From Acropora yongei (Eukaryota; Cnidaria; Anthozoa; Scleractinia; Acroporidae): a DNA stretch of 10,000 nucleotides. The notes below the pieces were generated by a model. It had not been told where the DNA came from. It saw only the letters and a list, made by a program, of their open reading frames with translations, and did no database searches. Below, in pieces: positions 500-8,078 of the stretch (position 1 is the stretch's first letter; every line of letters begins with the position of its first letter). The translations under genes and the position numbers were made by a program. The DNA lies in assembly GCA_014634225.1 (NCBI GenBank), contig BLFN01000150.1, positions 1,532,217-1,542,216 on the forward strand, given 5' to 3'.

Positions 500-1074
500 A
501 AGCAGTAACACGATCCTTGAAGAATACAAAGATGTGTTTGAGGGTCTTGAGGAACTTCCAGGCGAATACAGGATCACCATGGATGAGAGTGAGAAACCGA
601 AGACGAGTTCCCGTGGCAGTTCGTCCCAGAAACAAGGAAAAATGAGACGAATTAGTGCAGCGAAACATCATCACACCAGTGACCGAGCCAACAGAATGGG
701 GGTCAAGTATGCTAGCATTAATCAAGCGGAACAAAATTCGAGTTTGTCTAGACCCAAGGGATTTAAACGAAGCCATCAAAAGAGAGCACTTTCAGATGCC
801 TCCAACAGAGGAAATTGCTACTCGACTTGATAGAGCGAAGTTGTTTATAGTAGTTGACGCAAAAAACGGATTCTGGCAAAAGAAGCTAGACCGAGCGTCC
901 AGTAACAAAACTACCTTTACCAACTCACTCCCGAGAGACTCATACCAGAGAGACTCATACCAGACCCCCGTAAGATTGAAGCGATTTTCTTCTTAGCTAG
1001 AAGACGTCGCCGCCATTAAGCGTTTTCTAGGAATGGTGAACTACCTCTCAACGTTCATGCCGCATCTGAGCGAT
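500..1074 (+). pseudogene. Gypsy-type reverse transcriptase, internally deleted
   Basis: This continues the same + strand pol relic. The pre-RT linker (EEYKDVFEGLEELPGEY, about 516-567) is followed in other frames by RRVPVAVRPR and then VTEPTEWGSS (about 679-708). Next come the fingers (KIRVCLDPRDLNEAIK, about 733-780) and palm motif A (VVDAKNGFWQ, about 850-880), whose Asp is one of the catalytic metal ligands. Homology stops near 930. It resumes at PDPRKIEAI (about 960) and, in another frame, at the thumb segment DVAAIKRFLGMVNYL (1003-1047), ending near 1074. The palm segment with the YxDD catalytic pair is absent, so this copy cannot encode an active polymerase. A perfect 15-bp duplication lies at the deletion site. 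At least three frame changes are needed. Confidence 0.85.
934..963 (+). repeat. Perfect 15-bp tandem duplication at the RT deletion point
   Basis: The unit AGAGACTCATACCAG occurs twice in direct succession, at 934-948 and 949-963. It sits where the reverse transcriptase homology jumps from the palm to the thumb, so it may be a scar of the deletion. Because 15 is a multiple of three it does not change frame. Confidence 0.9.
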
Positions 1075-1559: not shown

Positions 1560-1599
1560 CGATGGCCCACAAGAGACACGCTGCAAACAAAAAAGAATC
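1560..1599 (+). repeat. Left terminal inverted repeat
   Basis: The end begins CGATGGCCCACAAGAGACAC and runs straight into the 20-bp array. It matches the reverse complement of 3754-3792, with mismatches at positions 8, 11 and 15 of the first 24 bases. Similarity beyond that includes an A-run followed by TCGCTG in both copies. Confidence 0.65.
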
Positions 1600-1720
1600 G
1601 CTGCAAGCAAAAAAAACGCGCTGCAAACAGAAAAGGGACGCTGCAACCAAAAAGCGAAAGCTGCAAGCAAAAAAGGAAGTCTGCAAACAAAAAACGAACG
1701 CTGCAAACAAAAACACAAAC
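1581..1720 (+). repeat. Minisatellite: 7 copies of an exact 20-bp period
   Basis: Units begin with CTGCAA at 1581, 1601, 1621, 1641, 1661, 1681 and 1701, spaced exactly 20 bp with no indels. The consensus is roughly CTGCAAACAAAAAACGAACG. Substitutions concentrate in the second half of the unit. Because 20 is not a multiple of three, and the unit contains no stop triplet on either strand, all six frames stay open across the array. The long Lys/Gln/Asn-rich and Phe/Cys/Leu-rich open frames here are therefore artefacts of the repeat. Each unit has one A-run, so A-runs recur every 20 bp, close to two helical turns. Confidence 0.95.
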
Positions 1721-4387: not shown

Positions 4388-4558
4388 CAGCGTATGGGTG
4401 GGTAAAGAGAAGGTGATATGCCTCGCATGGGACTTAGTGTCCCGTTCGCATAACACCTTGCACTTCGGTGCAAAAGTTGCTGAAAAAAACTCAGATAAAC
4501 TCAACAGATTAAGAATCCTTACTGATGGGAGGCAGACTAGTTATCTATTGTAGATGAA

Positions 4559-4657
4559 ACCAAGGAGTTGAACTAGGGAGTAATGAAAAACAAATCCAGC
4601 CCATGGACCAAGCTTGGGAACAGTGAATCTCGATGCAGCACCCTAACCAGTTGGCTT
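4559..4657 (-). mobile_element. Second tRNA-like SINE fragment
   Basis: On the - strand AAGCCAACTGGTTAGGGTGCT-like sequence (4657-4637) resembles a tRNA D-arm and A-box. About 60 bp further is GCTGGATTTG, then TAGTTCAACTCCTTGG (about 4576-4561). The B-box region is worn and not clearly recognisable. I associate the pair of motifs with a coral SINE from memory. It differs from the SINE at 1720-1975. Confidence 0.45.
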
Positions 4658-4956
4658 AACAGCTGTGTCTCTCTTTCGCAGTCTCACTGAAGAGTGGATT
4701 GCTACTGTATGTTAGCCATTATGAAAGAGGTCTATGCCACTGTTCATGCTATTTTCCTTCGTGCTACGCATTATTGGCCCTTGGCGGTTGGGTAATGCAC
4801 AGAACAAATGACAAGAGAAACTAACTGCTAATAACAATTTTATTATAATGATAGTTTATATTACTAATTATTACCAGAAGCTGTCAAGTTCTGCCTTGGT
4901 TCAATCAAAGTGATAGTTATCTTTGTGATCTCTACTACATTTTAATAGTTTCCCAG

Positions 4957-5007
4957 GGTCTTTGCAAGTACTCAAATTTACTCCGGAGCTGAACTGATAC
5001 AAGCAAG
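4957..5007 (+). CDS. Exon A: start of SEA domain carboxy-terminal half
   Basis: This is a 51-bp exon with phase 2 at both ends. The acceptor is TTAATAGTTTCCCAG ending at 4956; the donor AAG/GTGAGC at 5008 is strong. It encodes VFASTQIYSGAELIQA plus the first two bases of an Arg codon completed by exon B. The pattern leading into 'GS' is that of the strand before the cleavage loop in SEA domains (compare '...F.GVEV..FR.GS'). Support is the two splice sites, the phase match and the family pattern; the exon is short, so it is less certain than exons B and C. Confidence 0.5.
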
Positions 5008-6302
5008 GTGAGCCGGCAAACAAATACAGGGTCCGTACTGGTCATGGAAATCCTGGAAAGTCATGGATTTCTAGTCTTGTAAATTCCAAGCCAGGAAATC
5101 CTGGAAAATGATGACAAGTCATGGAAAATCCTGGAAAATTAGCCCTATGCACTAACAAAATAACAAAATATCTTCATTTCGTATTCTGGAATGCATTCGT
5201 ACATTCAAGGAGACTGGATCCCATTGCCCCTAATTAATGATAATTATTACAGGATGGTGCTGGAAAAAGTCATGGAATTTTAATACACGAAAAGTCTACA
5301 AACCCTTGAAATACTGTCTTTATCATAATATTTGGTAGAGCAAAGAAGCTCTTGCACAGAATGTTCTTTGAAAAGATAGCTGGTTAGCAAAACAAAATTA
5401 ATGCTTTTAAAGTTTGCGTGTTACAGTGTCAATGAACCAGCTTTTTTAGCATGGTCGCTGATCAAAGGTAGTAAATATTGCTGACCTTTATTCAAATTCC
5501 TTGAGCCCTGGTAAAAGAAACAATAATTGTTTTCAAAAATTAATTGAAGTTTTTGACATTTATATTTTTAGTATCAATTTTCTGTTTTAGGTGGGGAAGC
5601 ATGATCTTTGATGTGGTCTTGAAGTTCAGCGCGGCAATTGCAGAGGATGATACTATTTCCATAATTCAAAAGGCTATTGTCGATGAAAAGCTTAGAGGAT
5701 TAAAAGCCGATACATTTTAATTATATTATTGGCATTCCACCCATCTTAGAAACGCGAAAAGTTAGCACTAAATCTGTACAAACTATAACCACAATGCCTA
5801 CCGGATCTACTCCAAAATCAGATGGTTTGTTTAAGTTTCGTATTGATTGTAATTGCATTGATATTAAAATTGATTGTTATTATGTGGCAGTTGCTGTAGT
5901 ACAGTAAGTTGGAAAGGCTGTGGCTGTTTGTTTATTATGGATAGCAAATTAATGAAATCTCAACACGTGACAGTTTTGTTAAACCCCACTAAACCCAAGG
6001 AGAACTATTTCATCTCTGTCGTTGCCGTAAAGAAGTCTGACTATAAACACCAGCCCTTTCCTAGGTGTATGAATTGGGTATTATTGGCCTAATGCTAGGG
6101 TTTGCCCTGTATTTGCAATGACATCCTGTCGAAAAACTCTCAGTAACATCATGATACAGAAACTGGAAGACGCCTCGGTTTTGTCGGCCATTTTTTCATT
6201 TGCTTTTATGGGTAATGTGGTATGGGTAATGTGGTATATTATACAACCATCCCCCGAAGGGGAGGTGAATAGTAGTGGATATATACCGAGACGCGAAGCG
6301 TG

Positions 6303-6382
<80 letters not shown>

Positions 6383-6437
6383 TGCTGTTTTAATTTCTTC
6401 CTCTGAAACTTTCGCGAAACGACGCGCTATTTTTCTT

Positions 6438-6472
<35 letters not shown>

Positions 6473-6473
6473 T

Positions 6474-6505
<32 letters not shown>

Positions 6506-7167
6506 GTGCTATCCACTGATTTGGTAAATACTAATGTTGATTATTTTTTTGTGTATAACTTATGCACAAACCAAAATCATAACACATATTAACAATGTCA
6601 GCCTCTTTAAATCTACCAATCAGCAGCAAGTGTCAATGCTTGTATGGTTGTTTTGTTGTCAATGAACACCATTCGCTGACTGGTAGATCACAATGCGGTT
6701 GTGGATACGTGACTATATTCCCATAACAAGTTAACAGGTACTGAGCTATGGTTATCTTTTGGTTCAAGATGCTTAGTTAGACTGCATTTCATGTGTCAAT
6801 ATTCAGGGTGCTGTGAGGCTTTATTATTTCAATATGGCTTTGTGAGTTAGTGGCTCATATGATGACATTGATTTTTATCATAGAGAAATCAATTAGAATA
6901 AAAATATATTGAATGTTTCTTTCGTACAATTTACAGTGAGCGACAGTCACACAGCTAGGAGAACATAAAATGTGTAATACAATACAAATCCTCCCCTTCT
7001 TTTCTTTGATTTCAGACCATACTTTGTTATTAGCTATCGGTTCTTCCATTGGGGCTGTAGTTCTGGTTGTTGTTGTTGGAGTTGTGATTTGGTGGGTGCC
7101 CAAGAGGGGAACTCCAGGAAATAAAACGCTTAAGATGACTGCAGGATACCCAGGCATATGCCACTGA
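4957..7167 (+). CDS. SEA-domain single-pass membrane protein (partial, three exons, frameshifted)
   Basis: Exons at 4957-5007, 5591-5824 and 7016-7167 join in matching splice phases (2, then 1). Together they encode the carboxy-terminal half of a SEA domain, a Thr/Ser-rich linker, one transmembrane helix and a 20-residue tail. This is the usual end of a mucin-like or adhesion-type cell-surface protein of type I topology. SEA domains often self-cleave at a Gly-Ser bond and stay attached non-covalently; exon B carries GSMIF at the matching place. Earlier exons are not seen and probably lie left of the window, beyond the transposon block. One extra T in a run of four at 5715-5718 puts a TAA in frame (5718-5720). 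One base fewer would keep the frame open to the exon end. The locus is therefore a recent pseudogene, a truncated allele or a sequence error. Confidence 0.6.
5022..5285 (+). repeat. Dispersed repeat with GTCATGGAAATCCTGGAAA motifs, in intron A-B
   Basis: GTCATGGAAATCCTGGAAA (5041-5059) is followed by GTCATGGATTT (5060-5070), AGGAAATCCTGGAAAATG (5093-5110) and GTCATGGAAAATCCTGGAAA (5118-5137). GTCATGGAATTTT recurs at 5269-5281. The motif is internally repetitive (TGGAAA steps) and resembles a repeat I remember as widespread in invertebrate genomes. It is non-coding. Limits are approximate. Confidence 0.6.
5591..5824 (+). CDS. Exon B: SEA domain end and Thr/Ser linker, with frameshift
   Basis: The acceptor TTTTCTGTTTTAG ends at 5590. 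Forty-two codons encode WGSMIFDVVLKFSAAI, then EDDTISIIQKAIVDEKLRGL. These fit the SEA strand after the Gly-Ser cleavage site (codons at 5595-5600), a helix, and the final '(G)KL..L.VD' turn. A TAA at 5718-5720 ends this frame. In the +1 frame from 5719, 34 codons are open: IIGIPPILETRKVSTKSV, then TITTMPTGSTPKS, a mucin-like linker. The donor ATG/GTTTGT at 5825 is weak but gives the phase needed by exon C. The frameshift lies in TTTT at 5715-5718. Confidence 0.6.
6207..6234 (+). repeat. 14-bp tandem duplication
   Basis: TATGGGTAATGTGG occurs twice in succession (6207-6220 and 6221-6234), followed by a further TAT. It lies just outside the hairpin at 6243-6349. Confidence 0.85.
6243..6349. 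repeat. Long imperfect hairpin
   Basis: The outer arms ACAACCATCCCCC (6243-6255) and GGGGGATAGTTGT (6337-6349) pair with one mismatch. Inside, GTGGATATATACC (6275-6287) pairs perfectly with GGTATATATCCAC (6305-6317). ACGC-GAA-GCGT (6291-6301) forms the apex. The stem is interrupted by small loops. It abuts the inverted-repeat element at 6351-6534, and the two may form one composite mobile unit, which I recall seeing together in coral sequence. Confidence 0.85.
6351..6534. mobile_element. MITE-like element with perfect 19-bp terminal inverted repeats
   Basis: TTAGTATTTACCAAATCAG (6351-6369) and CTGATTTGGTAAATACTAA (6516-6534) are exact reverse complements, enclosing 146 bp without coding capacity. 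The perfect match suggests recent insertion or conversion compared with the worn elements at the left. It lies in intron B-C of the SEA gene. No clean target duplication was identified: the left neighbour is the hairpin and the right is TGTTGATT. Confidence 0.8.
6611..6688. repeat. Short inverted repeat
   Basis: ATCTACCAATCAGC (6611-6624) and GCTGACTGGTAGAT (6675-6688) pair at 13 of 14 positions across a 50-bp spacer. It could be a short non-autonomous element or a chance fold. Confidence 0.6.
7016..7167 (+). CDS. Exon C: transmembrane helix and cytoplasmic tail
   Basis: A strong pyrimidine tract and acceptor (CTTCTTTTCTTTGATTTCAG, ending 7015) precede 49 full codons and a TGA at 7165-7167. 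The first two bases complete an Asp codon begun in exon B. The peptide is about 25 hydrophobic residues (LLLAIGSSIGAVVLVVVVG, then VVIWWV). A basic stop-transfer segment (PKRG) and a short tail ending GYPGICH follow. This is a typical last exon of a type I membrane protein. The Gly/Ser-containing start of the helix is common in cnidarian surface proteins. No convincing AATAAA signal was seen soon after; ATTAAA variants occur near 7470. Confidence 0.65.
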
Positions 7168-7529
7168 ATTTTTTCAGATCAGAATTTTACGAAAGTTAAA
7201 AAAAGTGACTTTTTGCTGCAGGCAAACTGGTGAAAGCATATAAGTTACGATATAGGCATTTACAGTACATTTGACAACCCTAATTGCCATAGGATGACTG
7301 CTATCATGGATATAAGAGCACTGATCATTTTCCACTTGTGTGTCCCAGGTTCATTAACCCATATGGTTGGTCTGTTGGTTGTTGGTCTTCTCTGCTACCT
7401 GAGTTCCTCTTAGGATATCCTGGTTTTCCACTCTATCAAAACCCAATACTTGATGTGATTTGACCAGATTAAAATTGATTAAATATTGTTGTTACCTTTC
7501 CAATCACTAGAGCACCAGCAGAGACTAAG
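7168..7529. other. No recognisable gene
   Basis: Non-coding, probably 3' flank or untranslated region of the SEA-domain gene. No open frame with recognisable content, no clear polyadenylation hexamer and no obvious repeat was seen. Confidence 0.5.
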
Positions 7530-8000
7530 TTTTTCATCATCATCGTTGTTAGAATCTCATCAATGCATGAAACAAGACGTTGGTGTTTTGTATCTATGTG
7601 TTTGTGTTGGCAATCCCTCGTAGCGAGTAAGGTGTCCACTTGGCAGTGATTGAATTAAATTAAATTAGATTAGTTTACATGAGTTCGCCAGTGACTATAC
7701 AGTCCGATTCGGGAAGAGAAAATTCTCTGACAGACTGGACACGTGAGTAGTAATGCCAGTAGAGGTTGGAACTGTCCTGGCATCTTGTTGTCTCTCTTTT
7801 CTCGCCAGGCGGAGTCTCTCACTGTGTTCCTTTGTCTGTTAATCACGGTCCGTCACACCTGTATGGATAGCACTTCTCCAGCTAGGCCGGTCATTGGCAA
7901 GTTGCTCCCAGTTCACGGGGTTGATATCGCACTGTTTCAGGTTGTGTTTAAGTCTATCCTCCTTTGTATCTATGATTATTTTATGAATGACCCTAAGTGA
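7530..8000 (-). mobile_element. Non-LTR retrotransposon (LINE) 3' end, degraded ORF2 terminus
   Basis: On the - strand, DRLKHNLKQCDINPVNWEQL then RPSWRSAIHTGV (about 7955-7860) matches the basic segment after the reverse transcriptase in many animal LINEs ('R.K..L..C.I....WE..A.DR..WR...'). A TAA follows at 7841-7839. RLRLARKERQQ follows in another frame. A third frame holds CPVCQRIFSSRIGLYSHWRT with one more His: a C2H2 zinc finger (C-x2-C-x12-H-x3-H) whose first Cys codon is 7741-7739. The stop is at 7672-7670. AT-rich and CTCGCTACGAGGG sequence leads to a (GAT)3 tail near 7543-7535. Such fingers probably help bind element RNA or DNA. It is 5'-truncated near 8000. The clade was not assigned. 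Confidence 0.75.
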
Positions 8001-8078
8001 TAGGTATGGCATTATTTATATTTTCATTGAAAATTTTGTACCGGAACAGTTGATTTGCCAGGAGTCAGATAATTCCTG

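What the first reader, a model, noticed from the sequence alone, without database searches (positions are those of the whole stretch)
4957..7167. Phase-consistent three-exon end of a SEA-domain membrane protein
Three short open segments lie between good acceptors and donors, share phases 2 and 1, and give a meaningful order: strand before the SEA cleavage site, GSMIF, helix and 'KL..L', Thr/Ser linker, transmembrane helix, basic stop-transfer, tail. Chance would not give this order. It is the only well-supported host gene here, and none of its exons is long enough to stand out by length. The putative self-cleavage Ser is present, but the following residues (MIF) differ from the common VVV.
Basis: partly seen in the sequence, partly recalled or inferred. 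Interest (0 to 1): 0.75.

Follow-up and report, generated by a model that had tools for sequence, protein, structure and literature searches.

The report
Decayed coral SEA-domain receptor fragment
This stretch of coral DNA is a broken, partial copy of the membrane-proximal part of a family of coral cell-surface receptors, many of which carry a tyrosine kinase inside the cell; the copy itself probably makes no working protein.

The parts
4485..8031 (+). duplicated segment, introns included, shared with other loci of the same genome (outermost ends of the matches)
   Evidence: blastn pieces of 65-84% identity to loci on C334, C21, C350, C179, C248, C352 and C34
4949..5007 (+). exon A, second SEA exon (reader had 4957)
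   Evidence: FPRVFASTQIYSGAELIQA(R)
5591..5824 (+). exon B, second half of the SEA domain and Thr/Ser linker, frame broken
5592..5594 (+). TGG (Trp) where 9 of 9 paralogous loci have Cys
5712..5723 (+). stretch with four extra bases against paralog C334; holds the in-frame TAA 5718-5720
7016..7134 (+). exon C, transmembrane exon; one base fewer than C334 and C21 at about 7110-7116
7135..7136 (+). AT where C334 and C21 read GT, the donor inferred from P0065 and P0067

Best explanation
A decayed, partial duplicate (pseudogene fragment) of the membrane-proximal part of an acroporid-coral receptor gene: second and third SEA exons plus the transmembrane exon. Intact members have Ig domains, a SEA-fold domain, a Thr/Ser linker, one transmembrane helix and then a tyrosine kinase or a shorter tail. 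Shown: homology of exons and introns to paralogs, the broken frame, the changed donor position, no Ig or kinase match nearby. Inferred: segmental DNA duplication, that the breaks are real and not assembly errors, that no working product is made. For intact members I infer that the Ig part binds a ligand, the SEA module is a stalk that may cut itself at Gly-Ser, and the kinase signals.
For: In-frame stop and phase remainder; split matches in two frames; four extra bases in B, one fewer in C, AT for GT; Cys to Trp; intron homology; nine other exon B copies without a stop in the matched part; no Ig, first-SEA or kinase match in 50 kb; P0065 matches elsewhere on the contig are not collinear with the window exons; P0065 and P0063 share the window's linker type.
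Against: Splice sites of A and B are intact; exons are better conserved than introns against C334 (0.80-0.86 versus 0.76-0.78), and dN/dS is 0.72 and 0.50 rather than 1, so decay would be late or partial. The tblastn did not report the window's own exon C either, so it can miss short hydrophobic exons. One search scored 54 of 114 candidates. No reads or transcripts were seen.
Confidence: 0.85

Rival explanations
1. A functional receptor gene whose frame breaks are errors of the assembly, with its other exons far away.
For: Intact splice sites, dN/dS below 1; coral introns here can be long, e.g. 6.4 kb between A and B on C350.
Against: Several independent changes at once: +4, -1, GT to AT, Cys to Trp; no P0065 match upstream of the window on its contig.
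Confidence: 0.08
2. A short stand-alone SEA membrane protein or mucin-like gene.
For: SEA, Thr/Ser linker and TM in order, as in the sea-anemone mucin1-like genes described in PMC9080433 (passages).
Against: Frame broken; closest full-length relatives are Ig receptors, P0065 with a kinase.
Confidence: 0.03
3. A transcribed relic that yields a truncated soluble or regulatory product ending at TAA 5718.
For: Sites for A-B splicing are intact.
Against: No Ig or first-SEA exon found within about 25 kb upstream.
Confidence: 0.04

Closest known systems
Acropora muricata 'fibroblast growth factor receptor-like isoform X3' (P0065) and kin in Acropora and Montipora
   Same: Exon B tail plus C: 82% identity over 66 aa, same linker type; paralog C334 78% over 133 aa
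   Different: P0065 has three Ig domains and a kinase and an open frame; the window has none of these
SEA domains of solved structures (mucin-16 1ivz and 7sa9; transmembrane protease 2e7v)
   Different: Sequence identity 11%; Pfam SEA below cut-off; a Cys pair (28 of 35) as a family trait; the model is of a relative, not of the window
Receptor tyrosine kinases RET and FGFR
   Same: P0065 kinase region matches RET and FGFR1-3 chains (about 263-294 bits; an EGFR-named chain, 9p9u, is first with 306)
   Different: From memory, RET and FGFR have no SEA domain; no kinase in the window
Sea-anemone mucin1-like genes (PMC9080433, passages only)
   Same: SEA followed by a TM at the C-terminus
   Different: PTS-rich mucin regions instead of Ig domains; the word kinase does not occur in that text

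Membership tests
SEA domain | SEA fold (beta-alpha-beta-beta-alpha-beta) in a family member | tested here: met
   P0042 model, core pLDDT 88-93; best VIA-align rows are SEA. Plain Foldseek ranks other ferredoxin-like folds first.
SEA domain | Score over the Pfam PF01390 cut-off of 26.4 bits | tested here: not met
   Window A+B 12.4 bits; P0054 17.3 bits; 10 of 20 SEA pieces match at E up to 10, best 0.0016; the window is not among the 4 places of the genome search.
SEA domain | Gly-Ser at the turn between strands 2 and 3 | tested here: met
   Present in the window and in 29 of 35 proteins, but in only 3 of 9 paralogous loci.
SEA domain | Self-cleavage | not testable with these tools
   Needs expressed protein.
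Ig-SEA receptor family of Acroporidae | Homologous SEA and TM exons | tested here: met
Ig-SEA receptor family of Acroporidae | Ig exons upstream, and kinase or tail exons downstream, in the same gene | tested here: not met
   No match in 50 kb; other C63 matches not collinear.
Pseudogene | Disrupted coding frame relative to paralogs | tested here: met
Pseudogene | No functional transcript or protein | not testable with these tools
   No RNA data at hand.

The most novel reading that the evidence does not exclude
The window is debris of a birth-and-death receptor family, so far seen only in Acroporidae, in which one Ig ectodomain plus a SEA module that Pfam does not recognise is joined to interchangeable inner parts: a RET/FGFR-like kinase, or shorter tails of which a few carry ITIM-like tyrosine motifs. 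Such a set could work as paired activating and inhibitory receptors, for example in self or partner recognition, with the SEA module able to release the ectodomain.
Probability: 0.15. Interest if true: 0.7.

Novelty: new variant of a known kind. Interest (0 to 1): 0.38.

Why it matters
The copy itself is ordinary gene debris and a warning against calling a gene from exon order alone. The family behind it matters more: coral proteins now named 'fibroblast growth factor receptor 3-like' and the like carry an unannotated SEA-fold domain next to the membrane, an arrangement described in none of the papers that my seven searches listed and that I looked into, and kinase and non-kinase forms share that ectodomain. 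If the SEA site is cut, these receptors could shed their ectodomain, which is testable.

Tried and rejected
Pfam SEA: no hit over the cut-off on window pieces, none at all on five typed pieces and composites of paralog exons, one sub-threshold hit among six relatives, not among the 25 of 73 families shown for 35 relatives, sub-threshold in 10 of 20 SEA pieces. I did not take this as absence because fold and paralogs agree. PDB sequence searches with one SEA piece and with a 20-sequence profile gave no SEA entry. Plain Foldseek: best hit a seryl-tRNA synthetase, Nup54 at rank 28, Gpr126 at rank 50, no mucin SEA in the 50 shown. Rfam: nothing. The full-length P0065 model was poor (mean pLDDT 46.3; region 301-391 alone has the same order of strands and helices at moderate confidence), so I did not search with it. 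First-SEA exon: found in 3 of the 9 regions compared, the window's own among the 6 without; in C179 it holds a stop, so other copies are damaged too. ITIM-like pattern [ILVS]xYxx[ILV] in 3 of the 17 proteins without the GKGAFGQV string, which weakens the paired-receptor idea. Papers: seven searches listed none whose title, abstract start or passages describe this architecture; I read passages of PMC8662651, PMC12960093, PMC8764167, PMC6374515 and PMC9080433, no whole text; the library holds open-licence papers only.

Full report
What is there. The window lies in a 405 Mb, 365-contig genome at C63:1532217-1542216. Of 38 proteins found with the SEA region of relatives, 37 carry a source name and these 37 are from Acropora (27) or Montipora (10). 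The host is therefore very probably an acroporid coral; the species was not identified. That search needs shared five-residue words, so relatives outside Acroporidae may be missed.

Check of the observation. Reading on from A the protein is FPRVFASTQIYSGAELIQARWGSMIFDVVLKFSAAIAEDDTISIIQKAIVDEKLRGLKADTF and then TAA at 5718. The Thr/Ser linker and the phase-1 junction to C lie in another frame; the length of B leaves a remainder of one. Against paralog C334 the window has four extra bases there and, further on, three that keep the frame. P0065 matches the window in two pieces in two frames that meet at 5710/5714. With 58.2 bits against at most 25.8 in shuffles, homology is beyond chance.

More damage. 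P0065 and P0067 read ..(R/K)-E-N-T-K-G-M.. at this point, which fits a splice at AAAG|GTGACT in C21 and GCAG|GTGACT in C334; the window reads AAG|ATGACT. The donor is inferred from this alignment; P0062 and P0064 read on a little further there. The Cys before Gly-Ser is present in 9 of 9 paralogous loci and is Trp in the window. Six relatives used as tblastn queries found no Ig, first-SEA or kinase exon in 50 kb, about 25 kb upstream and 23 kb downstream; the same search did not report the window's own exon C, so it can miss short hydrophobic exons. On contig C63 the listed P0065 matches are the window pieces and, 220-310 kb downstream, an Ig exon (89% identity), a first-SEA exon, an Ig-like piece with a stop and two kinase-end pieces; none lies upstream of the window (54 of 114 candidates scored). 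That order cannot be one gene with the window exons in place.

Where it came from. Window 4485-8031 aligns in pieces, introns included, to several other loci, so it arose as a DNA copy and not from mRNA. Nine other copies of exon B were found, a lower bound, with no stop inside the matched part and frames that run on into the linker. The two C352 copies, 3.8 kb apart, fit the two SEA domains of A. palmata P0058. Paralog C334 has a kinase-end match 15.5 kb downstream on the same strand. Against C334, exons are 0.80-0.86 identical and introns 0.76-0.78; against C21, exons 0.77-0.82 and introns 0.69-0.75. dN/dS is 0.72 (window-C334), 0.50 (window-C21) and 0.54 (C334-C21) over 93 codons. This suggests past constraint and late decay; the counts are small.

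Reading. Best supported: a decayed, partial duplicate of an Ig-SEA-TM receptor gene (0.85). How intact members work (ligand binding by Ig domains, SEA as a stalk that may cut itself, kinase or adaptor signalling) is inferred from known families and not tested here.

Noticed in passing
window 6236-6535: About 300 bp repeat with inverted arms (6243-6294/6298-6349) inside the intron between B and C; 39 other places of 220 bp or more, 83-98% identical, in the genome (40 of 88 candidates scored): a young MITE-like element.
   Followed up: yes
window 5014-5308: About 295 bp present in the window but not in paralog C334, in the intron between A and B, full of CATGGAAATCCTGGAAA-like words; probably a coral repeat.
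   Followed up: no
window 655-996: Fragment with a weak, sub-threshold reverse-transcriptase match (PF00078, E 0.0014, 18.8 of 29.6 bits), probably a retroelement remnant.
   Followed up: partly
window 1578-1713: Tandem repeat, period 20, about 6.8 copies.
   Followed up: no
G000:C63:1758607-1759750: Ig exon 89% identical to P0065 followed 0.8 kb later by a first-SEA exon, with no exon B match listed near it: another partial copy or a gene with long introns.
   Followed up: no
L027 (C179:443600-453599): Another family copy whose first-SEA exon holds an in-frame TGA while its exon B is open.
   Followed up: no
P0058 (A. palmata, 645 aa): Family member with two SEA-like domains with an Ig domain between them; fits the tandem exon B copies on C352.
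   Followed up: partly
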